In this document: positions 63 through 11,582 of the stretch, piece by piece
Layout: the number at the start of each line of letters is the position of its first letter
Position numbering within the stretch: the first letter of the stretch is position 1
NCBI GenBank assembly: GCA_029939385.1
Contig: JAOZSZ010000014.1
Span: 1 to 13,272 of the forward strand
Origin: Pontiella sp.
GTDB taxonomy: Bacteria; Verrucomicrobiota; Kiritimatiellia; Kiritimatiellales; Pontiellaceae
Length of the DNA: 13,272 nucleotides
Direction of reading: 5' to 3'
Made by a program: the position numbers and the translations under genes
The notes under the pieces: model-generated
What the model was told of the DNA's origin: nothing
Database searches by the model: none
The model's input: only the letters and a program-made list of their open reading frames with translations

Positions 63-599
63 ATGGTCGATTTATCAAAATTTAATAATGATGCCTTTAA
101 GCGGGGTGCTCCTGCGGTGAAGGAGTTGCTATGGCGCATGATCCAACAGGGATTTTTTAATACGGAATGGATCACGGCTTATGGGCTCAAGCGCTACATT
201 CTGCGTGTTTTTGGCGCAAAATTGGCTCCGTGCGTGGTGGTGAAGCCGAAGGCGAAGATTACCTTCCCGTGGAAGCTGTCGGTCGGGGCCAATTCATGGA
301 TTGGCGAAGAGGTGTGGTTGCTGAATTTGGATCGCATTACGATCGGTTCCAATGTCTGTATTTCACAGCGGGCTTTTCTTTGCACGGGAAGCCACGATTG
401 GAAGAAAGAATCGTTCGATCTCATCACCCAGCCGATTGTGATCGAAGATGGCGCATGGATTTGTGCCGATGTATTTATTGGGCCGGGCGTGACGGTGGGT
501 GAAAACTCGGTGGTTACGGCGGGCAGTGTGGTAAACAAGGATCTTCCGCCTAACATGATTTGCTCCGGCAATCCATGTGTGGCGGTGAAGCAGAGGTGA
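63..599 (+). CDS. WcaF-like hexapeptide-repeat acyltransferase
   Basis: A 178-residue left-handed beta-helix acyltransferase of the WcaF/serine-acetyltransferase-like group, expected to move an acetyl group from acetyl-CoA to a sugar hydroxyl in the cytoplasm. The N-terminal 50 residues are the helical lead-in typical of WcaF-type proteins (the FNN segment near residue 7, a GAKL turn at 51-54). Hexapeptide repeats run from about residue 60 to 157, with the steps SVGANSWIGE (73-82), ITIGSNVCIS (92-101) and VFIGPGVTVGENSVV (137-151). His111 in TGSHDW is the likely catalytic base, and the C-terminal GNPCV is the usual end of the fold. Length is normal for the family (about 180). The start has a GGGGAA leader. 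The TGA is one base from the next ATG, so the two genes are almost certainly co-translated. Family assignment is firm; the acceptor sugar is unknown. Confidence 0.88.
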   Translation: MVDLSKFNNDAFKRGAPAVKELLWRMIQQGFFNTEWITAYGLKRYILRVFGAKLAPCVVVKPKAKITFPWKLSVGANSWIGEEVWLLNLDRITIGSNVCISQRAFLCTGSHDWKKESFDLITQPIVIEDGAWICADVFIGPGVTVGENSVVTAGSVVNKDLPPNMICSGNPCVAVKQR

Positions 600-600
600 G

Positions 601-1566
601 ATGAAAATATTGGTAACTGGCGCGGCGGGCTTCATCGGCTCATATGTCGCACACGCATTGCTTGATGACGGCCACGAAGTGGTCGGATTTGATAACTTTA
701 ACGACTATTACTCGGTTGCACTCAAAGAAGCTCGGCATGCCAAACTTAATGCTCGCGAGGGCTATATCGGAATTCGGGGCGATCTCGCCGACTATCCACT
801 TTTAACCTCAATTTTCCAGCAACATCACTTTGGCCGGGTCTGTCATTTGGCCGCACAGGCGGGCGTTCGCTATTCTATCGAAAATCCGTTTGCCTATGAT
901 CAGGCGAATTTATCAGGACATTTAAACGTTTTAGAGTGCTGTCGAAACTTTGAGATTCCGCGGCTTGTCTATGCCTCTAGTTCGAGTGTTTATGGTGGAA
1001 ATAAGAAGGTTCCTTTTAACGAAAACGATCCCGTCGATCATCCTGTCAGTCTCTATGCCGCCACCAAAAAGGCGAACGAGCTGATGACGCATAGCTATAC
1101 CCATCTCTACGGCTTTCAGTCTATTGGCCTGCGCTTCTTCACGGTCTACGGCCCTGAGGGCCGACCGGATATGGCTTATTGGCTTTTTTCTGATGCGATG
1201 TTGAAGGGGAAGCCCATCAAGGTGTTTAACCACGGCGATATGAAACGCGACTTCACCTACATCGATGACATTGTCCAAGGCGTCAAAGCGGCCTTGTTCG
1301 TCGATGGACTCGATCCGTATGAAATTTTTAATCTAGGCAATAACCAGCCAGAGCGCCTGATGGATATGATCCAGATTCTCGGCGATGCCTTTGGGGTTGA
1401 GCCGCAGATGGAAATGTTACCCATGCAGCCCGGGGATGTGCCCATTACGTTTGCGGATATCACTAAAGCGCAGGCCAAGCTCGGCTATCAACCCACGACG
1501 TGCCTGAAAGAGGGATTGGGCCGGTTTGTGGAATGGTTTCAAAATCAGGAAAGAGGGAAGATCTAG
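601..1566 (+). CDS. UDP-glucuronate 4-epimerase-like SDR (NAD-dependent epimerase)
   Basis: A 321-residue extended short-chain dehydrogenase, best matched to UDP-glucuronate 4-epimerases (LpsL/Cap1J type), which convert UDP-glucuronate to UDP-galacturonate in the cytoplasm by a reversible C4 oxidation. Visible signatures are the Rossmann glycine motif GAAGFIG at 7-13, NAD-ribose contact D31-N32 (FDNFNDYY), HLAAQAGVRYS at 82-92, the serine run 127-129, the catalytic YxxxK as Tyr152 and Lys156, and the segments VYGPEGRPDMA (182-192) and MQPGDVPITFAD (275-286), both typical of the UGA-epimerase branch. It is slightly shorter than most members (330-350). GAGGTGAG just before the ATG is a good ribosome binding site. 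The substrate could also be another UDP-hexose; the fold is certain and the uronate preference probable. Confidence 0.87.
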   Translation: MKILVTGAAGFIGSYVAHALLDDGHEVVGFDNFNDYYSVALKEARHAKLNAREGYIGIRGDLADYPLLTSIFQQHHFGRVCHLAAQAGVRYSIENPFAYDQANLSGHLNVLECCRNFEIPRLVYASSSSVYGGNKKVPFNENDPVDHPVSLYAATKKANELMTHSYTHLYGFQSIGLRFFTVYGPEGRPDMAYWLFSDAMLKGKPIKVFNHGDMKRDFTYIDDIVQGVKAALFVDGLDPYEIFNLGNNQPERLMDMIQILGDAFGVEPQMEMLPMQPGDVPITFADITKAQAKLGYQPTTCLKEGLGRFVEWFQNQERGKI

Positions 1567-1570
1567 CCGG

Positions 1571-2347
1571 ATGAAAATATCAATTATAACGGCAACTAGG
1601 AATTCGGAAGCGAGTATTCTCGATACGCTCCACTCTATTGCAGAGCAGGACTATCCGCGCGATCAAATTGAATGGATCGTCATCGACGGCGCGTCGACGG
1701 ATCACACCATTGAACGAATTAAGGCCTCCAATTTTCAGCCCGACAAGCTGATCTCGGAAGCGGATGAAGGGATTTACGATGCGCTAAATAAAGGGGTTCG
1801 ATGGGCCACGGGCGATGTGGTGGCCTTTCTACATGCGGATGATTTCCTCGCCTCCACCGATGTGCTGAGTCGGGTGGCCGATGCGTTTAAAAATTCGGAT
1901 GTCGAAGCGGTTTATGGGGATCTTGAATATGTCCGCCCCCAAGCAGATCAGGGTTTCTCGGTGGTTCGATATTGGAAAAGTGGAGCGTACGATCCCCGTC
2001 GATTGCGCTGGGGATGGATGCCGCCGCACCCCACGTTTTATTTAAAGAAGACGGTTTATGATCGGGTGGCTGAGGCGGAGAAGGACTATTTTGATACCAC
2101 TCTTTCTTGTGCGGCCGATTATGATTTTATGCTGCGGATCTTCTCAAAATATAAAGTTAAACCGGTCTATCTAAAGCAGGTGCTTGTCAAAATGCGGATC
2201 GGGGGAATGAGCAATCGAAGCCTGAAGCATATCCTTCAAAAATCGCGCGAGGATTGGCTAGTGATCCGACGCAATCGCATCGGGCACATTCATACGCTGG
2301 TATGGAAAAATCTCAGTAAGTTGGGGCAATTTATCAAGCGGGGTTGA
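1571..2347 (+). CDS. GT2-family glycosyltransferase (WcaA/WcaE-like)
   Basis: A 258-residue GT-A fold family 2 glycosyltransferase, which would add one sugar to the lipid-linked repeat unit at the inner membrane face. Seen in order: the opening beta strand MKISIITATRN, VIDGASTDHT with Asp39 for nucleotide binding, DEGIYDALNKGVRWATGD (65-82), the metal-binding HADD at 88-91, a PHPTFY segment at 152-157 and an acceptor-side DYDFMLR at 183-189. The IYDAxNKG and PHPTFY pair is characteristic of the colanic-acid WcaA/WcaE-like branch. I chose the ATG at 1571 because the protein then begins exactly at the conserved strand; a longer in-frame opening from 1526 would run into the preceding gene. The gap to the epimerase is 4 bases, with a GAGGG at 1553-1557. 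No transmembrane segment is seen. Donor and acceptor cannot be read from sequence. Confidence 0.9.
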   Translation: MKISIITATRNSEASILDTLHSIAEQDYPRDQIEWIVIDGASTDHTIERIKASNFQPDKLISEADEGIYDALNKGVRWATGDVVAFLHADDFLASTDVLSRVADAFKNSDVEAVYGDLEYVRPQADQGFSVVRYWKSGAYDPRRLRWGWMPPHPTFYLKKTVYDRVAEAEKDYFDTTLSCAADYDFMLRIFSKYKVKPVYLKQVLVKMRIGGMSNRSLKHILQKSREDWLVIRRNRIGHIHTLVWKNLSKLGQFIKRG

Positions 2348-2421: not shown

Positions 2422-5079
2422 ATGAAAACGAATAGAACCGATATGGAAGCAGAACAAATAACAACCCCTTCACCGCTTAGCGCGGAGGAGCGGAATACAT
2501 TGTTGTACGACTGGAATCCTGCGCCAACCCCTTATCCCTCGCTCCCCGTGCACGCGCTCTTTGAAAAGCAGGTTATTGAGCGCGGCGAATCGGTGGCTCT
2601 GATCTTTGAAGATCGCCAGTTGAGTTATCAAGAGCTGAACAAACAGGCGAATCGGCTTGCGCACTATCTTATCGAAATCGGAGTTCGCCCCGGACAATCC
2701 GTCGCCCTTTTTTTGGAGCGTGGTCTTGATCAAATAGTGGCCACATTGGCTATTCTCAAGGCGGGGGCAGTTTATATCCCCCTTGACGTTGAGTTTCCGC
2801 AGGAACGCATTGTTCAAATGCTAGAAGATGCCCCACCGCATTGTGTGCTCTCGAATACCTCTTTGGCGGGACGGATAGATGATCCCGTGATGCTGGATGA
2901 ACTGGCCGACACACTACGGACTTATCCCGAATCGAATCCCGCTATTGAGCATCCTTCCAATGCCTTGGCCTATATCATGTATACCTCCGGATCGACCGGA
3001 CGCCCGAAAGGAGTCGAGGTAACGCATCGGGGCATTGTTCGACTTCTCTTTGGCGGGAACTATGTTCCGCTCAATACGAATACGATCATTCTTCATATGG
3101 CCGCAACCTCGTTCGATGCGGCTACTTTTGAAATTTGGGGCGCCCTTCTGCAGGGAGGAACCTGCGTACTTTGTCCATCGCGCGTTCCCACACTCGATAC
3201 GATCGGACAGTTGCTGGCCGCCCATCGTATAAATACATTTTGGATGACTTCGGCGCTTTTTAATCTGGTGATTTCCGAGGCTCCGCAGCTTCTCAAGCCG
3301 GTAAAGTATCTCTTGGTTGGGGGCGAAGCTCTTTCGCCGCGGCATGTTGAAAAGGCGTTGCGTGAATTACCGGAAACCCAGCTCATTAATGGCTACGGGC
3401 CCACCGAAAATACGACCTTTTCTACCACCTATACTTTTGATCGAACCACCTTTGATCCCGCGCGCCCGATCCCGATTGGCCGCGCCATTGGGAATTCCAC
3501 TTGCTACGTGCTTGATGCGCACCAGCAATTGGTCCCCGTCGGCGTTCCTGGGGAATTGTATCTGGGTGGCGATGGCTTGGCCCGGGGCTATATAAACCGT
3601 CCGGACTTGACGGCCGAATGTTTTTTTAATGATCCGTTCAGCTCCGAATCCGATGCGCGGATGTATAAAACCGGCGATAGAGTCTGTTGGAATCCAGAGG
3701 GATTAATTGAGTTTCTGGGGCGCATCGATCATCAAATAAAGTTGCGCGGGTTCCGGATTGAGCTTCAGGAAATTGATCTTGTGATCGGGGCTCATCCCAA
3801 AGTTGAACAAGCCATTACGACGGTCTTTGAGGATGCTGTACGCGGGAAGGGGCTCGCCTGCTACGTTAAAGGCGTTGATCTGGATCGGGTTTCTTTAGAT
3901 GAACTGGAAAAATTTGCCTATACAAAACTGCCCGACTATATGGTTCCCGCACGGTTTATTCCTGTAAAAGAATGGAGTTACACCCCCAGCGGAAAACTGG
4001 ATCGGAAGGCCCTGCCGAAGCCATTGTTGACTCGCTCCGACCCCGCAAATTTTCAGGCACCGGAAAACGAAACCCAAAAGGCTTTGGTTGGGATTTGGGA
4101 ACACTTACTCCAGATTAAACCCATCAGCATCGACGATCACTTTTTCGAGCTCGGCGGCGATTCACTCCGCGCCGTTCATCTGTTTCATGAAATCCATCAG
4201 CATCTGGGACGCGAGCTTCCGCTGGCCACCCTGATGCAGTCGCCAACACTTCGAGGATTAGCCGCGATCATCGATGGCCATTCCGAAGAATCACCCTTGG
4301 AAGGTTTTCGTTCTCTACAATGTATTCAAAAGGGCGATCCCGACGTCGCTCCGCTTTTCATGATTCATGGCGGAGCCGGGAACGTGGTGGTCTTTCGCGA
4401 ATTGGCCCACAACCTCGGCGCCGATCAACCGGTATATGCCTTCCAATGGTCGGGGTGGGATGGGCATCGGGGGGATCGCAGCATTCCCGAAATGGCGGCC
4501 GCTTATAAAGAAGAGTTGCTTCGCTTTCATCCGTCAAAAACCTATCGGCTGGGCGGGCACTGCATGGGCGGGCTGATTGCTATAGAGCTGGCCCAGCAGT
4601 TGCGTGCGGAAAATATTGGCATCGACGGCCCGATCGTGGTGTCGGACTGTCCCAATCTAAAATCTATTCATTATCATCAAGAGGAACCCGATGCCTCTGG
4701 ATTAAAACGGTTTCCTTGGGTTATTTCTTTCGTACGTCGGGCGCGTGCTTTGCCGCAAAATTTACGAATTAATTGGACCTTAATACGCGGGAGAAAAGTT
4801 TCGATGAAGGATCGGGCGTTCTATTCCTCGGGAACGTTGGTCGCCGCGGCCAAGCGGTATACTCATCCGCACTATCCCGGCGACATTCTCTATTTCCGTT
4901 CCGCCTGCATGCTAGGGCGTAATTTGGGATTGCAAGGCTGGTGGGACGATCCCTTCCTCGGGTTTGGTGAATTATGCGAGGGCCGGTTTGAAACACATGA
5001 GGTGGGCGGTGAGCATAATGAGGTGTTGAGTCTTCCTGAGGTGGCCGAGCTGACACGTCGCGCAATATCTAAAAAATAG
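2422..5079 (+). CDS. Single-module NRPS: adenylation, carrier and thioesterase domains (A-T-TE)
   Basis: An 885-residue protein that should activate an amino acid as its adenylate, load it on its own phosphopantetheine arm and release or transfer it through a thioesterase. Adenylation domain (about 35-535): YTSGSTGRPKG at 187-197, YGPTE at 325-329, the GELYLGG region, YKTGD and GRIDHQIKLRGFRIE, and the A10 lysine Lys525. Residues lining the pocket by my alignment to GrsA are D232, A233, F236, W274, L298, G300, G324, T332, F333, K525, close to a known valine code. Carrier domain (about 545-618): FFELGGDSL with Ser581 as the phosphopantetheine site. Thioesterase (about 634-885): GHCMGG with Cys714 at the nucleophile position instead of serine, likely Asp742 and His865 (GGEHN). 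There is no condensation domain, although residues 18-35 resemble the linker that normally follows one. Product unknown. Sitting between glycosyltransferase and CDP-sugar genes suggests amino acid decoration of a glycan. Domain calls are secure; substrate and product are inference. Confidence 0.93.
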   Translation: MKTNRTDMEAEQITTPSPLSAEERNTLLYDWNPAPTPYPSLPVHALFEKQVIERGESVALIFEDRQLSYQELNKQANRLAHYLIEIGVRPGQSVALFLERGLDQIVATLAILKAGAVYIPLDVEFPQERIVQMLEDAPPHCVLSNTSLAGRIDDPVMLDELADTLRTYPESNPAIEHPSNALAYIMYTSGSTGRPKGVEVTHRGIVRLLFGGNYVPLNTNTIILHMAATSFDAATFEIWGALLQGGTCVLCPSRVPTLDTIGQLLAAHRINTFWMTSALFNLVISEAPQLLKPVKYLLVGGEALSPRHVEKALRELPETQLINGYGPTENTTFSTTYTFDRTTFDPARPIPIGRAIGNSTCYVLDAHQQLVPVGVPGELYLGGDGLARGYINRPDLTAECFFNDPFSSESDARMYKTGDRVCWNPEGLIEFLGRIDHQIKLRGFRIELQEIDLVIGAHPKVEQAITTVFEDAVRGKGLACYVKGVDLDRVSLDELEKFAYTKLPDYMVPARFIPVKEWSYTPSGKLDRKALPKPLLTRSDPANFQAPENETQKALVGIWEHLLQIKPISIDDHFFELGGDSLRAVHLFHEIHQHLGRELPLATLMQSPTLRGLAAIIDGHSEESPLEGFRSLQCIQKGDPDVAPLFMIHGGAGNVVVFRELAHNLGADQPVYAFQWSGWDGHRGDRSIPEMAAAYKEELLRFHPSKTYRLGGHCMGGLIAIELAQQLRAENIGIDGPIVVSDCPNLKSIHYHQEEPDASGLKRFPWVISFVRRARALPQNLRINWTLIRGRKVSMKDRAFYSSGTLVAAAKRYTHPHYPGDILYFRSACMLGRNLGLQGWWDDPFLGFGELCEGRFETHEVGGEHNEVLSLPEVAELTRRAISKK

Positions 5080-5157: not shown

Positions 5158-5937
5158 ATGAAGGCGGTTATTCTCGCGGGGGGCTTTGGTACCCGTATTA
5201 GTGAAGAAAGCGCGGTGCGTCCGAAGCCGATGGTGGAAATCGGACCGCAACCGGTTCTCTGGCATATCATGAAAATCTATGCCCACCACGGCATCACCGA
5301 TTTCGTGGTGGCTTGTGGCTACAAAGGCGACATGATTAAAGAATACTTTTCCAAAATGTTTCTATCGATGGCCGATGTAACCTTTGATTTAAAAACCAAC
5401 TCCCTCGAAGTCCATCACACGCGGGCTGAACCTTGGCGCGTGACTTGTCTGGACACGGGAATAGACAGCATGACGGGGGGCCGCATGAGGCGGGTGCGTG
5501 ATTATCTCGATAACGAAACCTTCTGCATGACCTATGGCGATGGGGTTTCGGATATCGATATCACCGCCGAGATTGAATATCACAAAAAAGAAGGGTTACT
5601 GGCCACGATGGCGGCGGTTAAAACGCCGGGACGGTTTGGTGCTTTTTCCCTTCATCCCGACGAGACAAAGGTCAATAATTTTTTAGAGAAACCGGATGGA
5701 GATGGCGCCTGGATTAATGGTGGATTCTTTGTGCTAGAACCCTCGGTGCTCGACTATATTGACACCGATAAGACGACGTGGGAGCAGGAACCCATGCAGC
5801 GGCTGGCAGAAGATGGCCAGCTTGGGGCCTTTCGCCATTCCGGCTTCTGGCAACCGATGGATACTCTACGCGATAAGCATGTGCTGGAAGAATTATGGGA
5901 GTCCAACAAGGCTCCGTGGAAAGTCTGGAGCGAATGA
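5158..5937 (+). CDS. rfbF: Glucose-1-phosphate cytidylyltransferase
   Basis: A 259-residue nucleotidyltransferase that joins CTP and glucose 1-phosphate to CDP-glucose plus pyrophosphate, the entry step to CDP-deoxysugars. The CTP-binding signature [11 protein letters not shown] is at 8-18 and RPKPMVEIG at 21-29, both diagnostic for RfbF rather than RmlA or GalU. YGDGVSD at 126-132 carries the metal-binding aspartates, [11 protein letters not shown] at 185-195 binds the sugar, and the end [11 protein letters not shown] at 230-240 is also family-typical. Length matches known RfbF proteins (about 257-260). It is 78 bases after the NRPS stop; that gap shows no convincing terminator or promoter. 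Its stop overlaps the ATG of rfbG (ATGA at 5934-5937), so the two are coupled. Confidence 0.95.
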
Positions 5938-7040
5938 ATTCCTTAGAAACCCACTACAATGGCAAGACCGTTCTGCTGACGGGCCACACCGGCTTCAAGG
6001 GTTCATGGCTGGCCGAGTGGTTGCTTTCGCTGGGGGCGAACGTGGTGGGCGTGAGCCTCGACCCCGTCGCCGAACCTTCGCTTTTCGAGCAACTTAATCT
6101 TAAGGATCGGTTGGAGCACCATATCCTCGATATTCGCGATGCGGAAAAACTGGCAATGCTCATTAAAGCCACACAGCCCGATATTGTATTCCATCTCGCG
6201 GCACAGGCATTGGTTCGCTATTCCTACGCCCATCCACTCGAAACTTTTGCAACGAATATCATGGGCACGGCCCACGTACTCGAAGCACTGCGGCAGATAG
6301 AAGGGGCTTGTGAGGCGGTGATCATCACGACCGATAAATGCTACGAAAACCATGAGTGCTCCACGCCCTACTCCGAGGACGATCCTATGGGCGGCCACGA
6401 TCCATATAGCGCCAGTAAGGGGGCCGCAGAGTTAGTGGTGGCCTCCTATCGTCGCTCCTTTTTTGATCCGGCGGAATATGGAAAATCCCATCGAATTGCC
6501 GTAGCGACGGCCCGCGCGGGAAATGTGATCGGTGGGGGCGACTGGGCACTCGACCGCATTATGCCCGATTGCATGCGCACGCTGGCCGCGGGCGATCCGA
6601 TTCCCGTTCGCAACCCCTCCGCCACCCGCCCGTGGCAGCACGTCCTCGAACCCTTGGGCGGCTACCTTCGTCTCGCCGCGCGGTTGGCGCAGGTCGAAAC
6701 CGAAGAGCAGCGAAAGGTTCTGTTTTCTGGCTATAACTTTGGCCCCGATCCCTCGGCCAATCGACCGGTGCGCGATTTGGTCGAGCAGGTCTTAAAAGGG
6801 TGGCCGGGCGAGTGGCTTGACTTGGCAGATCCCAACGCGGTGCATGAGGCTGGTCTGCTCAATCTGTCGATCAACAAGGCGGAGCGGTTACTCGCGTGGA
6901 CGCCGGTCTGGAGTTTTGAAATGGCGATCGAGCAGACCGTGCAGTGGTATCGGCGTGTCTTGGAGGACTCCTCCTGCGCAGCGGAACTGACGCGGCGGCA
7001 GATCGCGGAATACTCGGAGGTTTTTGGCTATGAAATTTGA
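5934..7040 (+). CDS. rfbG: CDP-glucose 4,6-dehydratase
   Basis: A 368-residue extended SDR that turns CDP-glucose into CDP-4-keto-6-deoxyglucose with bound NAD. The nucleotide loop is GHTGFKG at 17-23 and the FKGSWL extension is characteristic of RfbG. TTDKCYEN at 132-139 carries the acid and base (Asp134, Lys135) used in dehydration, and YSASK gives Tyr158 and Lys162. [17 protein letters not shown] at 197-212 and [15 protein letters not shown] at 226-240 are further RfbG marks. Length is usual (about 355-370). I took the ATG overlapping the rfbF stop; an earlier in-frame opening at 5895 lies inside rfbF and precedes no conserved residue. The product feeds the following epimerase and oxidoreductase. 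No RfbH (C3 dehydratase) is present nearby. Confidence 0.95.
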
Positions 7041-7569
7041 ACCCGCCCCCCTCAAGGATGCTTGGGTGATTACCTTGGACCCGCACGGCGACGATCGCGG
7101 CTATTTTGCGCGCGCCTTTTGCCGGAAGGAATTTGAGGCACACGGAATCGAAACCAACGTGGCCCAGTGTAATGCCTCGTTTAACAAGGAGGCCGGAACG
7201 TTGCGCGGCATGCACTATCAAACTGATCCCGCCTCCGAAACAAAGCTGGTGCGCTGCGTGCGCGGGGCTCTTTACGATGTGATTGTTGACCTGCGCCCCG
7301 ACTCGCCAACCTATATGAAAAACTTTGGAGTCAGGCTTACGGCCGATAATCTGAAAATGCTCTTTGTACCGCGCAATTTTGCTCACGGTTTTTTGACGCT
7401 GGAGCCGGATACCGAAGCCTTCTATATGGTGGCGGAGTTTTATACGCCGGAATACGAGTGCGGGCTTCGCCACAACGACCCCGCGCTGGGCATCGAGTGG
7501 CCCTCGCCGATTAAGGTGATCAGCGAGAAAGATGCGAGCTGGCCACTTCTTCAGGGAGGAAAATCATGA
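7030..7569 (+). CDS. rfbC: RmlC/RfbC-type 4-keto-sugar 3,5-epimerase
   Basis: A 179-residue cupin of the dTDP-4-dehydrorhamnose 3,5-epimerase family, which inverts C3 and/or C5 of a 4-keto-6-deoxy nucleotide sugar. The catalytic set is present: His62 in LRGMHYQ, Lys72, Tyr138 in the FYTPEYECG segment, and Asp168 in SEKD, the partner of the histidine dyad. PRNFAHGF at 114-121 is the usual core strand. Length is normal (about 180). The ATG at 7030 lies inside the last codons of rfbG (11-base overlap) with GGAGG at 7016-7020; a TTG two codons earlier is less likely. Because it is coupled to rfbG and no rmlA, rmlB or rmlD is here, the substrate is probably CDP-4-keto-6-deoxyglucose rather than the dTDP sugar. 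That is inference, so the symbol denotes family only. Confidence 0.88.
   Translation: MKFEPAPLKDAWVITLDPHGDDRGYFARAFCRKEFEAHGIETNVAQCNASFNKEAGTLRGMHYQTDPASETKLVRCVRGALYDVIVDLRPDSPTYMKNFGVRLTADNLKMLFVPRNFAHGFLTLEPDTEAFYMVAEFYTPEYECGLRHNDPALGIEWPSPIKVISEKDASWPLLQGGKS
7554..7560 (+). promoter_or_regulatory. Ribosome binding site for the SAF-domain oxidoreductase
   Basis: GGGAGGA lies 5 bases before the ATG at 7566, which overlaps the epimerase stop as ATGA. A second in-frame ATG at 7572 is 11 bases away and cannot be excluded; the choice changes the protein by only two residues. Confidence 0.6.
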
Positions 7570-8864
7570 TCATGATCGATACCGCATTGAAGAAGCGCGC
7601 CGAAGAGGGGCGTCCGCTTAAAGTCGGCCTCGTGGGTGCGGGAGCCATGGCGCGAGGAGTCGCCAACCAAATCATTAACTCGGTGCCCGGTATGGAGTTG
7701 GTCGCGATTGCCAACCGGACGCCTGCTCACGCCGAGCGCGTCTATGCGGAGGCGGGGGTGGAAAATGTTTCCGAAGCATCCACGCTTGCGGGGTTGCAGG
7801 ATTGTTTGGCGGCCGGGAAACCGGTGATTACCCACGATGCAATGATGTTGTGCGAGGCCGAGGGGCTGGATGCCATTATCGAGGCGACCGGGGCCGTTGA
7901 ATTTGGAGCAAACTTGGCTCTCAAGGCTTTCGCTTGTGGGAAAAATCTGGTTTCGATGAATGTTGAACTCGATGCCACCGTAGGCTCAGCACTCCAGCAC
8001 CATGCGAAAAAGGCCGGCGTCCTCTACACCATTGCCGATGGGGATCAACCTGGTGTTGAAATGAATCTTTGGCGCTATGTGAAAAGTATCGGCATGGAAC
8101 CGCTCGTCTGTGGAAATATTAAGGGTTTGCAGGATGCCTATCGTACGCCGACCACGCAAAAGGGGTTCGCCGAGCAGTGGGGGCAGGATCCTTATATGGT
8201 GACCAGCTTTGCGGATGGAACAAAGATCTCGATGGAACAAGCTTGTGTGGCGAATGCAACCGGGATGCAGGTTGAGATGCGCGGCATGCGCGGCGGCGAC
8301 TTTGAGGGGCATATTGACGAGTTGTGTCATTCGGGGCGCTATGATGTCGACCGGCTTCGCGAGCTGGGCGGGGTGGTGGACTATACCGTAAAGACCCAAC
8401 CGGCGCCGGGTGTTTTTGTGCTCGCCACCAATGAGGATCCAAAGCAAAAGCATATGCTTGATCTCTATAAGCTGGGCAAGGGACCGCTCTATAGTTTTTA
8501 CACGCCTTATCATCTGTGCCATTTCGAGGTGCCGTTGTCGGTGGCGCGCGTGGTGTTATTTGACGACGTGGTGCTGGCGGCGGAGCAACCTAAGGTGGAT
8601 GTGATCACCATGGCGAAGACCGATCTAAAGGCGGGCGATATGCTGGACGCTCTCGGCGGCTATATGACCTATGGCCAGTGTGAGAATTATCCGGTGGTGC
8701 GTTCGGAGAATCTTTTGCCCCAAGGGCTGGCGGTGGGTTGCCGGCTTAAGCATGACCTTTCAAAGGATACGGCGATTACTTACGATGATGTTGAAATCCC
8801 CGCCGGGCGCATGTGCGATCAGCTCCGGGCAGAACAAAATCAACTTTTTACAAAGGGCATCTAA
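7566..8864 (+). CDS. NAD(P)-dependent oxidoreductase with C-terminal SAF domain (COG4091-like)
   Basis: A 432-residue protein of the type annotated as predicted homoserine dehydrogenase with SAF domain (COG4091). Residues 18-135 form a Rossmann fold with GLVGAGAMARG at 21-31, an AIANR strand end at 47-51 where the cofactor ribose sits, and EATGAVEFGA at 106-115. The middle part, about 150-340, includes IADGDQPG (156-163) and the GNIKGLQD and RTPTT segments (183-197). The SAF-like region, about 345-415, has AKTDLKAGD and the matching LPQGLAVGCRL. True homoserine dehydrogenase is unlikely in this setting. Coupled to the epimerase by a 4-base overlap, it may reduce or otherwise modify the CDP-4-keto sugar, but this reaction has not been shown to my knowledge. 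The family call is firm; the reaction is open. Confidence 0.82.
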   Translation: MIMIDTALKKRAEEGRPLKVGLVGAGAMARGVANQIINSVPGMELVAIANRTPAHAERVYAEAGVENVSEASTLAGLQDCLAAGKPVITHDAMMLCEAEGLDAIIEATGAVEFGANLALKAFACGKNLVSMNVELDATVGSALQHHAKKAGVLYTIADGDQPGVEMNLWRYVKSIGMEPLVCGNIKGLQDAYRTPTTQKGFAEQWGQDPYMVTSFADGTKISMEQACVANATGMQVEMRGMRGGDFEGHIDELCHSGRYDVDRLRELGGVVDYTVKTQPAPGVFVLATNEDPKQKHMLDLYKLGKGPLYSFYTPYHLCHFEVPLSVARVVLFDDVVLAAEQPKVDVITMAKTDLKAGDMLDALGGYMTYGQCENYPVVRSENLLPQGLAVGCRLKHDLSKDTAITYDDVEIPAGRMCDQLRAEQNQLFTKGI

Positions 8865-8890: not shown

Positions 8891-9544
8891 ATGGTGAGTG
8901 TACTCGGTACCGCTGTGGCTGTATTGGGGATCCTCCATGTGATCGCGTGTCTTCCGCTGGTTTTTATGGGACGATCCCATCCGCTGGGATTCCTAAGTTT
9001 GGATGGCGAATCCAATTTGCCCTCACTGTTTTCTGTGGCGTTGCTTTGGTGTAGTGCGGTGCTGACCGCATGCATAGCATGGGCGGGGAAGGATGGGTTG
9101 ATCCGGAGAGTCTTTTGGATCGGGTTGAGTTTAGCATTTGTTTTGGTGGGGTTGGACGAGGGAACGATGATTCATGAACGGGTTCCGGGATACGTTCAAC
9201 AATTCACGGAAATCTCAGGGCTATTTTATTCTTCATGGGTGGCCTTATATGCACTATTTCTAGTGTTGTTTTTGGCAACCTACGGATGGTTCTTTTTCGC
9301 CTTGCCTCGGGACACGCGCAAGCATCTTGTTCTTGCGATTCTTCTATATCTTGGCGGGGCAATTGGAGTGGAAATGGTCGGTTGGGTATGGGTGGTGGAT
9401 CATGGAAAGGAATCCGTCTACCATCTATTGGTTCTGGTTGAAGAAATATTAGAAATGGCGGGCAGTATTGCCTTCATCTATACGTTTTCCAGCTACATCG
9501 ATAGGCATCTTCCCCATCTTCGTTTTAGAATTACTTCAGATTAA
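8891..9544 (+). CDS. Uncharacterised six-helix inner-membrane protein with buried acidic and histidine residues
   Basis: I do not assign a function. With the ATG at 8891 it has 217 residues and about six hydrophobic helices, near 5-26, 46-65, 74-92, 111-138, 146-169 and 178-202. Charged residues sit in or beside the helices: LDEGTMIHERV (Asp89, Glu90, His95, Glu96), Glu161 in VEMVGW, and EEILEM (Glu184, Glu185, Glu188). The segment DGESNLPSLFS after helix 1 resembles a conserved stretch I recall from unnamed bacterial membrane proteins. The set of acidic and histidine residues could bind metal and act as an enzyme site. It starts 26 bases after the oxidoreductase stop. The ATG has a poor ribosome binding site; a GTG at 8813 would extend it into the preceding gene and is less likely. 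It is probably the last gene of the plus-strand cluster. Confidence 0.72.
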   Translation: MVSVLGTAVAVLGILHVIACLPLVFMGRSHPLGFLSLDGESNLPSLFSVALLWCSAVLTACIAWAGKDGLIRRVFWIGLSLAFVLVGLDEGTMIHERVPGYVQQFTEISGLFYSSWVALYALFLVLFLATYGWFFFALPRDTRKHLVLAILLYLGGAIGVEMVGWVWVVDHGKESVYHLLVLVEEILEMAGSIAFIYTFSSYIDRHLPHLRFRITSD

Positions 9545-9578: not shown

Positions 9579-11582
9579 TTACGGCTCCGGAATCTCCACA
9601 TCCTCCACCGAGCATTCGTTCAGTGATTCGAGAAAGAGTCGGCCATACCATTGATCGCGGATACGGCTATCGAGAATAGAGACCGTTCCGTAATCGCTTC
9701 CGCTACGGATGAGCCGGCCCACGCCTTGACGAAATTTTAGAACCGCTTCGGGAAGCGAATATTCTTTGAATGAATTTCCGCCCCGCGCTTCGATCGATTC
9801 AAATCGGGCTTGGGTTAAAGGGTGGTCGGGAACGGAAAAGGGAAGGCGAGTGATGATCACATGGCTTAGCGCTTCGCCGGGCACATCGACCCCCATCCAA
9901 AAACGATCTAACCCAAACAGTACGCCCGCCTCGTGGTTACGAAATGTTTCAAGCATCCGTTTGGGAGGGATGCCCGCGCCTTGCACGAGAAATGCGTAGC
10001 CTTCCTCTTCGAAATCAAAGCGCAACTCCTCCGCCACTTTTTTCATAAACCGCGAATTAGTAAAAAGCACGAAGGCCCGTCCTCGGCTTTTATTCACGAA
10101 ATACCGAATGGCCGTGGAGGAGGCGGACTCAAAATTATTCGCGGTCGGCGGCGGCATATTGATCGGAATTTGAATCTGCATCTGTCGGGCATAGTCGAAG
10201 GGGGAGCCCACACGCAGTTCTGTGCACTCCTCGGCACCAATGCGGTGACGGAAATATTCAAGATTGCTACCGACGGCCAGCGTGGCGCTGGTCATGATGA
10301 CACATGGAATTTCCTCAAAAAGCATTTCGCGGAGGATTGGAGCAACATCAACCGGTGCGGAATAGAGCACGGCTTGTTTGCGCCGGCCCTGAATCTCGAC
10401 CCAGTAAACCTGATCCTCTAGCGATTGCTTGAGAAAGGATTCAATGATATCGCGCAGCTCTAACCCTCGGCTTCGCGATGATTTGATCTCCGACTGGATA
10501 TCGGGGTTGTCGGTCGTCTCTGTGAGCGTTTTTAGGTGGAGGCAGAGGTTGGTTATTTTTAGGGGCAGATCGGTTTCGATGGGCGGCGGCGCGAAGACCC
10601 GTTGCTGGGTTTTTTGTGCGCCGAGCTTGAAGTGGTTACGAATGGATTCGAAGAAGATCTCTGCGGCATCGGCGGTTTGGGTGGCCAGAAAAGCGCCTTT
10701 ACCATCTTTGAGTGCGGCACAAAGCCCTTTTCGCTTTTCGCTGCCGTAGATGCGCCGGAGCCAGTATTCAACCATGTAAAGCGAGAGCCGGATACCGAGG
10801 TGCGCCGATGCAACCTGCTCCATTTGGTGGGCTTCGTCGAATACGACATAGCCGTAAGGCGGAAGAATGGCCGCCCCTTCTGCGCGCAGTGCAAGCTCTG
10901 AAAAGAAGAGAGAGTGGTTTACCACGAGGACCTGTGCATTCATCATTTCTTGTCGTGCCGTCATGAAATAGCACTCTTTATAGAAGGGGCAGCGTTTCCC
11001 GGTGCAGTTTCCATATTCTGCGCAGATGGCTCCCCAAACCTGGTGATCGGGTTGCTCTTCTAATTCCTGCAGGCTCCCGTCGGCCAGCTGGTTGTTGCTG
11101 GCTAGCGCATAGATGACTTCAAGTTGGTTTTCTCGATCGGTATCGAGGAGGTCGCCTCTCATTTTTCGTGCACGTTGAAGGCGCCGCCGACAGAGATAAT
11201 TCGAGCGGCCTTTCACCATGACGGCTTTGAAGTCGCACCCCAGTATCTTGCGGACAAGCGGAATATCCTTATGCATCAACTGCTCTTGGAGGGTGATGGT
11301 ATAGGTAGCGATCACGCAGCGTGTTTCATGTTCGAGTGCGGTAAGGATTTGGGGAACGAGGTAGGCAAAGCTCTTTCCGACGCCCGTGCCGGCTTCAACG
11401 GCAAGATGGTGGCCAAGGTGGGCGGCATCGGCGATGGCCCTCGCCATTTTTTGCTGTTGCGGGCGCAACTCAAACTCAACATCACCCTCGGTGAAATGTT
11501 GCTCCAATAGGCCGCCGGGCTCGAAAAAAAGGTCGGTCGTTTTTATGGCCTGTGGCGTTGGATTTGAGAGGGGTGAAGTCAT
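9579..11582 (-). CDS. dinG: DinG-family iron-sulfur ATP-dependent DNA helicase
   Basis: A 667-residue superfamily 2 helicase of the XPD/DinG group, which unwinds DNA 5' to 3' and helps resolve replication-blocking structures such as R-loops. Walker A is AGTGVGKS at 64-71 and the Walker B box is DEAH at 249-252. Between them are Cys131, Cys193, Cys198 and Cys204, whose 5- and 6-residue spacings match the iron-sulfur cluster ligands of E. coli DinG; Cys187 is an extra nearby cysteine. MTSATL marks the start of the second helicase half and QGVGRLIR at 619-626 is motif VI. There is no N-terminal exonuclease domain, so it is not the longer Firmicutes form. The ATG at 11582 has no strong ribosome binding site. 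It converges with the membrane-protein gene (34 bases between stops) and is unrelated to the sugar cluster. Confidence 0.95.
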   Translation of the reverse strand: MTSPLSNPTPQAIKTTDLFFEPGGLLEQHFTEGDVEFELRPQQQKMARAIADAAHLGHHLAVEAGTGVGKSFAYLVPQILTALEHETRCVIATYTITLQEQLMHKDIPLVRKILGCDFKAVMVKGRSNYLCRRRLQRARKMRGDLLDTDRENQLEVIYALASNNQLADGSLQELEEQPDHQVWGAICAEYGNCTGKRCPFYKECYFMTARQEMMNAQVLVVNHSLFFSELALRAEGAAILPPYGYVVFDEAHQMEQVASAHLGIRLSLYMVEYWLRRIYGSEKRKGLCAALKDGKGAFLATQTADAAEIFFESIRNHFKLGAQKTQQRVFAPPPIETDLPLKITNLCLHLKTLTETTDNPDIQSEIKSSRSRGLELRDIIESFLKQSLEDQVYWVEIQGRRKQAVLYSAPVDVAPILREMLFEEIPCVIMTSATLAVGSNLEYFRHRIGAEECTELRVGSPFDYARQMQIQIPINMPPPTANNFESASSTAIRYFVNKSRGRAFVLFTNSRFMKKVAEELRFDFEEEGYAFLVQGAGIPPKRMLETFRNHEAGVLFGLDRFWMGVDVPGEALSHVIITRLPFSVPDHPLTQARFESIEARGGNSFKEYSLPEAVLKFRQGVGRLIRSGSDYGTVSILDSRIRDQWYGRLFLESLNECSVEDVEIPEP

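What the first reader, a model, noticed from the sequence alone, without database searches (positions are those of the whole stretch)
2422..5079. Stand-alone A-T-TE amino-acid-activating protein inside a surface-glycan gene cluster
Sequence shows one protein with adenylation, carrier and thioesterase domains and no condensation domain, flanked by a glycosyltransferase and by CDP-sugar genes in the same direction. Known A-T-TE enzymes, such as the fungal atromentin synthetases, act alone on aryl-keto acids, but the pocket here looks amino-acid-like. The inference is that an amino acid is loaded and passed to a sugar amine or hydroxyl, or to a small amine, making an aminoacylated glycan by an NRPS route.
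Basis: partly seen in the sequence, partly recalled or inferred. Interest (0 to 1): 0.72.

Follow-up and report, generated by a model that had tools for sequence, protein, structure and literature searches.

The report
Amino-acid-loading enzyme in sugar-coat gene cluster
A single protein that picks up an amino acid and hands it on, built like one stripped-down step of a peptide-antibiotic assembly line, sits in a fixed place in bacterial surface-sugar gene clusters, where it probably attaches the amino acid to the sugar coat.

Summary
Window 2422-5079 (+) encodes an intact 885-aa adenylation-carrier-thioesterase (A-T-TE) protein without a condensation domain, between a GT2 glycosyltransferase and CDP-sugar genes. 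It belongs to a coherent family: 75 of 76 relatives found by the TE lack a condensation domain, and the TE nucleophile is Cys in 94 of 94 rows. In the window's genus the gene fills a fixed slot of a polysaccharide locus: a related GT2 lies upstream in 14 of 16 loci, the other two running off their contigs. No condensation domain was detected in any of 15 carrier genomes. In three Balneolota loci a distant member stands beside RfbF and DRL genes. One Chloroflexota MAG copy has no sugar genes in the 12.7 kb read.

Pocket codes point to an amino acid: valine-like here, proline-like in 67 of 94 rows (code table recalled). A and T-TE parts recombine as cassettes, and some members keep half a condensation domain. 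Best reading: a one-protein aminoacyltransferase that decorates a cluster-made sugar. Acceptor, bond and product are untested. New variant of a known kind.

The parts
2422..5079 (+). A-T-TE protein, 885 aa (alternative start Met8 at 2443)
2560..3996 (+). Adenylation domain (res 47-525); pocket code read as DAFWLGGTFK (valine-like; code table recalled)
4081..4269 (+). Carrier (thiolation) domain, res 554-616; phosphopantetheine Ser581 at 4162-4164
4351..5031 (+). Thioesterase-fold domain (about res 644-870): Cys714 (4561-4563) in place of the usual Ser, Asp742, His865; lid about 40 positions shorter than in relatives, gap near 4699
1571..2347 (+). GT2 glycosyltransferase (WcaE-like), the upstream neighbour of the A-T-TE slot
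601..1566 (+). NAD-dependent sugar-nucleotide epimerase family protein
63..599 (+). WcaF-family polysaccharide acetyltransferase
5158..5937 (+). RfbF glucose-1-phosphate cytidylyltransferase, Shine-Dalgarno-like GGAGG upstream
5937..7040 (+). RfbG CDP-glucose 4,6-dehydratase (ORF also open from 5895)
7024..7569 (+). RmlC-type 3,5-epimerase
7566..8864 (+). DRL/DXR-II-like NAD(P)-dependent oxidoreductase; relatives beside the Balneolota A-T-TE genes

Best explanation
The protein is a self-contained aminoacyltransferase for surface polysaccharide. The A domain adenylates an amino acid (valine or a similar aliphatic one in the window; proline in most relatives seen). The acid is loaded on the carrier arm, moves to the Cys of the TE-fold domain as an aminoacyl thioester, and is released onto a hydroxyl or amine of a sugar made by the neighbouring genes (most likely the CDP-sugar residue) or of the lipid-linked glycan on the cytoplasmic side. 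Shown here: domain make-up, catalytic residues, no condensation partner detected, locus conservation, domain shuffling. Inferred: the substrate amino acid, the Cys-acyl step, the acceptor, the side of the membrane, and ester versus amide.
For: A, T and TE domains with catalytic residues. A 233-aa phosphopantetheinyl transferase in the same genome, over the Pfam PF01648 cut-off and HetI-like but below that NCBIfam model's cut-off. No condensation domain detected in the own genome, in 0 of 15 same-genus carriers, or in the 3 carrier genomes outside the genus that were searched. GT2 upstream in 14 of 16 same-genus loci, the other 2 running off their contig on that side; RfbF at 72% identity or more in 9 of the 16. 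The same locus without the A-T-TE in G020: GT2 followed directly by RfbF, RfbG, RmlC, as expected of an accessory decoration gene. Tandem sets of 2-3 A-T-TE genes with different pocket codes in one slot in G008, G003 and G021. Balneolota: RfbF and DRL beside the A-T-TE in 3 of 3 loci and RmlC in 2 of 3; the one of these scanned further (L054) looks like an O-antigen-type locus. Crossovers near the A/T border: one G008 A-T-TE has a Pro-type A core (76% to L038, 31% to the window) on a window-type T-TE (69% to the window, 50% to L038); P0014 is the reverse. TE clades agree with sugar modules in 12 of the 13 same-genus loci that could be placed, out of 16: DRL in 3 of 3 window-clade loci, Epim2+CMeT in 5 of 6, AT_IV+DUF4910 in 4 of 4. 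N-terminal extensions of some relatives are the C-terminal half of a condensation domain (E 2e-11; 5 shuffled controls at best 0.04), so the peptide-bond part was lost while A, T and TE stayed.
Against: No biochemistry and no glycan structure. L052 (Dehalococcoidia MAG) sits beside G6PD- and luciferase-family genes, with no sugar-locus gene in the 12.7 kb read. Cys is not unique to this family: 9 of 32 outgroup TEs in the tree have it too. L041 breaks the TE-clade/sugar-module match, L036 fits no clade by identity, and L043 and L015 were not placed. In 8 of 94 rows, and in the Gly-type copies of L034 and L035, the TE Asp is replaced by Gly; in P0146, P0182 and P0184 the His position holds another residue, and some rows end before it. 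No sugar aminotransferase is seen in the window, so an amine acceptor is not obvious there. RfbF is absent from 6 of 16 loci as read and only 35% alike in a seventh (three of those genomes have it on another contig). Other acyltransferase genes occur in related loci (Acyl_transf_3 in L034; MBOAT in L036 with a homologue in L039), so the A-T-TE need not be the enzyme that touches the glycan. The window's own TE lid is shortened. Shared ancestry could explain part of the TE-to-module match.
Confidence: 0.6

Rival explanations
1. The TE is a shuttle, not the final transferase: like CmaE, SyrC or the LgnA type II TE it passes the aminoacyl group to another carrier or enzyme, where the amino acid is modified before or instead of reaching the glycan.
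For: TE- and AT-like enzymes that move aminoacyl groups between carriers are known (PMC8748450, passages and abstract). Pro-like pocket codes dominate the rows seen, and carrier-bound proline is often modified in trans (recalled). Other acyltransferase genes lie in some related loci.
Against: No separate carrier-protein gene or acyl-CoA-dehydrogenase-like gene among the neighbours annotated; but only representatives were scanned, and ORFs under 90-100 aa in the related loci were not examined, so a small free carrier protein would have been missed. Each of the tandem copies keeps its own TE.
Confidence: 0.14
2. It makes a free small molecule (aminoacyl ester or amide, or a cyclic dimer) and is only co-regulated with the glycan locus.
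For: Single-module NRPSs that esterify small alcohols with proline exist (AneB, PMC10720950, passages). One family member lies outside sugar loci as far as read.
Against: Fixed slot in the glycan locus in every same-genus locus that shows its upstream flank (14 of 14); association with a CDP-sugar module in a second phylum.
Confidence: 0.14
3. Atromentin/RalA-type enzyme that condenses two aryl-keto acids.
For: Same A-T-TE order (PMC9047271, passages).
Against: Asp at the amino-group-binding pocket position in 93 of 94 family rows, and Val- or Pro-like codes in most (reading of codes recalled).
Confidence: 0.02
4. Degenerate remnant of a peptide synthetase without function.
For: Half condensation domains in some members; one split copy (L036) and one A-less copy (L040, 10647-11840) in relatives; shortened TE lid in the window.
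Against: Core motifs kept across a large, diverse family; several kept tandem copies; presence in a second phylum with the sugar module.
Confidence: 0.05

Closest known systems
EntF / SrfA-C / AB3403-type terminal NRPS module (C-A-T-TE)
   Same: Top fold matches of the whole model (4zxh, 2vsq, 5ja2); same A, T, TE order; half a C domain still present in some family members
   Different: No condensation domain in the window protein and none detected in the genome
Alm system of Vibrio cholerae (adenylating ligase, carrier, AlmG transferase) putting glycine on LPS, and Dlt putting D-alanine on teichoic acid
   Same: Carrier-bound amino acid moved to a cell-surface glycoconjugate (PMC3783018, passages)
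   Different: There separate proteins with unrelated transferases; here one fused protein with a TE-fold transferase candidate
AneB/ThmA single-module NRPSs, aminoacyl esters of terpenes
   Same: One-module enzyme whose product is an amino-acid (proline) ester (PMC10720950, passages)
   Different: Fungal; its C domain is credited with the ester; acceptor is a terpene alcohol
LgnA type II TE; CmaE/SyrC aminoacyltransferases
   Same: TE-like or AT-like proteins that transfer aminoacyl groups (PMC8748450, abstract and passages)
   Different: They move the group between carriers of different NRPS subunits; not a fused A-T-TE acting on sugar
Atromentin/polyporic acid synthetases and RalA (RalA recalled)
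   Same: A-T-TE order (PMC9047271, passages)
   Different: Aromatic keto-acid substrates; here an amino-acid-type pocket
PacP (A-T-TE0) of pacidamycin
   Same: A-T-TE protein carrying an aminoacyl group (PMC8748450, passage)
   Different: Its TE was believed inactive for lack of the triad; the window keeps Cys-Asp-His

Membership tests
NRPS terminal module (EntF type) | Condensation domain with HHxxxDG upstream of A | tested here: not met
   No PF00668 in the protein; none detected in the own genome
NRPS terminal module (EntF type) | A, T and TE domains homologous to NRPS domains | tested here: met
Atromentin/RalA A-T-TE synthetases | A-T-TE order without C | tested here: met
Atromentin/RalA A-T-TE synthetases | Pocket lacking the Asp that binds the amino group (keto-acid substrate; feature recalled) | tested here: not met
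   Asp present in the window and in 93 of 94 rows
Dlt/Alm aminoacylation of surface glycans | ATP-dependent amino-acid activation and carrier loading | tested here: inconclusive
   Domains and residues present, a phosphopantetheinyl transferase in the genome; activity not testable here
Dlt/Alm aminoacylation of surface glycans | Separate ligase and carrier proteins and an AlmG (LPLAT) or DltB (MBOAT, recalled) transferase | tested here: not met
   Fused A-T-TE; no such transferase among the 10 window proteins scanned; an MBOAT gene is seen in L036, with a homologue in L039
Aminoacyl-glycan transferase (functional class) | Amino acid found on the glycan, lost in a mutant | not testable with these tools
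   needs chemistry
This A-T-TE family (defined here by its TE) | TE on the family side of a fully supported branch, Cys nucleophile, no C domain | tested here: met
   P0001 lies in the 58-row, all-Cys side (SH-aLRT 100, quick tree); 94 of 94 Cys; 75 of 76 without PF00668

The most novel reading that the evidence does not exclude
A multi-phylum family of one-protein aminoacyltransferases, derived from peptide-synthetase termination modules by loss of the condensation domain, decorates bacterial polysaccharides with amino acids. The A domain sets which amino acid, the Cys-TE sets which sugar, and evolution swaps the two as cassettes, so that a glycan's amino-acid substituent could be read from the A-domain code.
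Probability: 0.45. Interest if true: 0.8.

Novelty: new variant of a known kind. Interest (0 to 1): 0.62.

Why it matters
Amino acids on surface glycans change charge, immune recognition and phage binding (recalled). The known carrier-based routes (Dlt, Alm) use several separate proteins. A fused A-T-TE enzyme in a fixed glycan slot would be a simple, swappable route, would let genome readers predict amino-acid decorations from A-domain codes, and would give NRPS modules a place in polysaccharide biosynthesis. In my library searches I saw no paper describing an A-T-TE protein in a polysaccharide locus. That is weak evidence of novelty: open-access text only, searches used narrow term sets and returned no paper at all, and of the other listings only three papers were opened, for passages.

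Tried and rejected
Condensation partner elsewhere: not found in the recovered genomes (the own genome is 81% complete). Split NRPS: the only other PF00501 hits in the own genome are two partial ones in frames of about 455 aa on contig C24, whose type was not examined. Chance neighbourhood: rejected. Keto-acid synthetase: rejected by the pocket. Paper searches for printed pocket codes, for glycans with proline or valine, and for NRPS genes in O-antigen clusters gave nothing usable. The careful tree did not finish; the quick tree is used. The G031, G060 and G340 hits (2e-31 to 8e-31, first third of the TE profile only, open frames of about 2,350-2,400 aa) and the four Methylobacterium hits (31% identity; frames of about 2,080 aa in the three of four read, L064, L066, L067) look like ordinary larger NRPSs, and the Aminicenantes hit L068 lies among other NRPS-like frames; none was counted as family. 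The pocket position aligned to GrsA Thr278 depends on the alignment in Pro-type copies (L, F). The 94 rows come from two searches with two queries (the top rows and the listed rows, P0002 left out, plus L052 and L055), so code proportions reflect those queries.

Full report
What is there. The ORF at 2422-5079 is one 885-aa protein with an adenylation domain (res 47-525), a carrier domain (554-616) and a thioesterase-fold domain (644 to about 870) and no condensation domain. The genes on either side run the same way: acetyltransferase (WcaF family), epimerase and GT2 before it; glucose-1-phosphate cytidylyltransferase, CDP-glucose 4,6-dehydratase, RmlC-type epimerase and a DRL-type oxidoreductase after it. 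The window is the whole contig of an 81%-complete genome. Contigs of same-genus genomes match named Kiritimatiellales/Pontiellaceae records by length (for example G028:C2, 2,756,615 bases, Pontiella sulfatireligans).

It is a family, not a fragment. A search with the TE region of the Fodinibius roseus relative returned 76 proteins at E <= 1e-25; 75 carry no condensation domain by precomputed Pfam, although C-A-T-TE lengths were within the allowed range; the exception is P0179 (1371 aa). In 94 aligned rows (window, first-search relatives, these proteins and two loci) the TE nucleophile is Cys in all 94. The rest of the triad is less constant: 8 of 94 rows have Gly at the Asp, P0146, P0182 and P0184 have another residue at the His, and some rows end before it. 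In a quick tree of 90 TEs the family is a 58-row group, all Cys, cut off by a branch with SH-aLRT 100; of the other 32 rows 22 have Ser, 9 Cys and 1 Ala, so Cys by itself is not diagnostic. In the profile alignment to the fatty-acid-synthase TE the family Cys lies on its Ser, and the Asp and His also line up; the AB3403 TE has Cys there too. The full-length model (mean pLDDT 83, pTM 0.62) matches terminal NRPS modules best.

Where it came from. Relatives of about 1,060-1,100 aa carry about 170-190 extra N-terminal residues. A profile of 11 of these stretches (one from the split copy P0079) matches only the C-terminal part of a profile of 68 condensation-domain segments (template 203-459 of 467, probability 97, E 2e-11); five column-shuffled controls reach E 0.04 at best. 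The family therefore looks derived from C-A-T-TE modules by erosion of the condensation domain.

Where it sits. In the window's genus 15 of 28 genomes, its own included, carry a match at E <= 1e-100 (a sixteenth genome, G001 of another genus, has NRPSs with condensation domains). Over 16 same-genus A-T-TE loci, the window included, a related GT2 lies upstream in 14, with a partial A-T-TE copy in between in L040; the two others (L033, L044) run off their contig on that side. RfbF at 72% identity or more is in the same stretch in 9 of 16, a 35% relative in one more; in three genomes RfbF is on another contig. The common order is GT4, GT4, WcaF, GT2, epimerase, GT2, A-T-TE (one to three copies), LamG-VanZ membrane protein (11 of 16 loci; not in the window, L032 or L033), then a sugar module; single loci lack one or other part. 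G020 has this locus without any A-T-TE match: GT2 is followed by RfbF, RfbG and RmlC. G004, G014 and G025 hold parts of the sugar module at contig ends or on contigs of about 3 kb without an A-T-TE; these cannot show its absence. In the phylum sample 11 of 387 genomes match the TE profile at 1e-30; 8 are of this genus and 3 are weak part-matches to larger NRPS-like frames. In the family of G406 (the Fodinibius roseus genome) 3 of 92 match at 1e-40. The three Balneolota loci hold RfbF, a FAD oxidase and DRL beside the A-T-TE, RmlC in two of three; in L054, the only one of them scanned over several genes, WbqC, GT56 (fucosyltransferase family), nucleotidyltransferase and DegT genes follow. The counter-example is L052 from a Dehalococcoidia MAG, with no sugar-locus genes in the 12.7 kb read; its contig ends 1.8 kb past the gene, and 22 kb on the other side were not fetched.

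No assembly line. PF00668 was not detected in the own genome, in any of the 15 same-genus carriers (2 of 29 genomes in the set have it, G001 and G013; G013 has no A-T-TE match) or in the three carrier genomes outside the genus that were searched. The own genome has a 233-aa phosphopantetheinyl transferase, HetI-like but below that model's cut-off, over the Pfam cut-off.

Which amino acid. Pocket residues were read by alignment with anchor positions that I recall from GrsA, and the code table is recalled too; no code was found in print in the library. Window: DAFWLGGTFK, valine-like; this or a near variant in 12 of 94 rows. DVQFIAQVIK or a near variant, proline-like, in 67 of 94. DILQLGMIWK, glycine-like, in L034 and L035; DVFLMGAVNK-type (8 of 94) and DAFLLGAVIK (4 of 94) unassigned. 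In two genomes (G003, G021) three genes stand in tandem with Gly-like, unassigned and Pro-like codes.

Cassettes. In G008 one of the two A-T-TE genes has an A core 76-84% identical to the Pro-type A domains of L038 and L041 and 31% to the window, but a T-TE 69% identical to the window and 50-52% to L038 and L041; the change falls around residues 550-600. P0014 is the mirror image: A core 75% to the window and 33% to L038, T-TE 66% to L038 and 50% to the window. TE clades agree with the sugar module in 12 of 13 placed loci: window clade with DRL in 3 of 3 (window, L032, L033), a second clade with Epim2 and C-methyltransferase in 5 of 6 (L041 differs), a third with a class IV aminotransferase and DUF4910 in 4 of 4. 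Of the 16 loci L036 fits no clade by identity, and L043 (cut TE) and L015 were not placed. Shared descent of whole loci could produce part of this match.

How it most likely works. Shown: domains, residues, family, locus, shuffling. Inferred: adenylation of Val (window) or Pro, thioester on the carrier, hand-over to the TE Cys, then attack by a sugar hydroxyl or amine of the CDP-sugar or lipid-linked glycan. AneB shows that a one-module enzyme can make a proline ester (PMC10720950, passages), and TE-like or AT-like proteins can move aminoacyl groups (PMC8748450, abstract and passages). Alm and Dlt show amino acids moved from carriers to surface glycoconjugates (PMC3783018, passages). None of these, as far as I saw, is a fused A-T-TE acting on sugar. 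Other acyltransferase families in related loci leave room for a shuttle role.

Verdict. Real, conserved, and more interesting than a single odd gene, but the product is unproven.

Noticed in passing
window 5158-8864: RfbF, RfbG, RmlC and a DXR-II-like (DRL) oxidoreductase form a module shared in part with Balneolota. By analogy with the dTDP-dihydrostreptose route (recalled), the DRL enzyme could contract a CDP-4-keto-6-deoxyhexose to a branched furanose; pure inference. DXR-II-like relatives without shown DXR activity (DLO1/2) are described (PMC3847144, passages).
   Followed up: partly
L032:5968-7194; L054:4901-6178; L055:5344-6738; L056:4701-5972: A FAD oxidase (DAO family; the L032 copy scores just under the L-2-hydroxyglutarate oxidase cut-off) stands near RfbF in loci where no RfbG was found.
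   Followed up: partly
L045:7393-8400 and relatives in 11 of 16 same-genus loci: A LamG-VanZ fusion protein lies downstream of the A-T-TE in 11 loci, L036 with its Val-type A domain among them, but not in the window, L032 or L033.
   Followed up: partly
L034:17424-19646: Class IV aminotransferase (BCAT-like, below cut-off) plus a DUF4910 protein next to RfbF in four A-T-TE loci.
   Followed up: no
L036:8731-11966; L040:10647-11840: A split A-T-TE copy and a copy lacking the A domain; described only, not mended.
   Followed up: no
window 8891-9544: 217-aa protein, membrane-like by eye, with no Pfam or NCBIfam match at 1e-3, between DRL and the convergent DinG/YoaA-like helicase.
   Followed up: no
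L033:996-3011; L041:1580-3013; window 9579-11582: The DinG/YoaA-like helicase also lies at this end of the locus in two other genomes, a possible shared chromosomal border.
   Followed up: no
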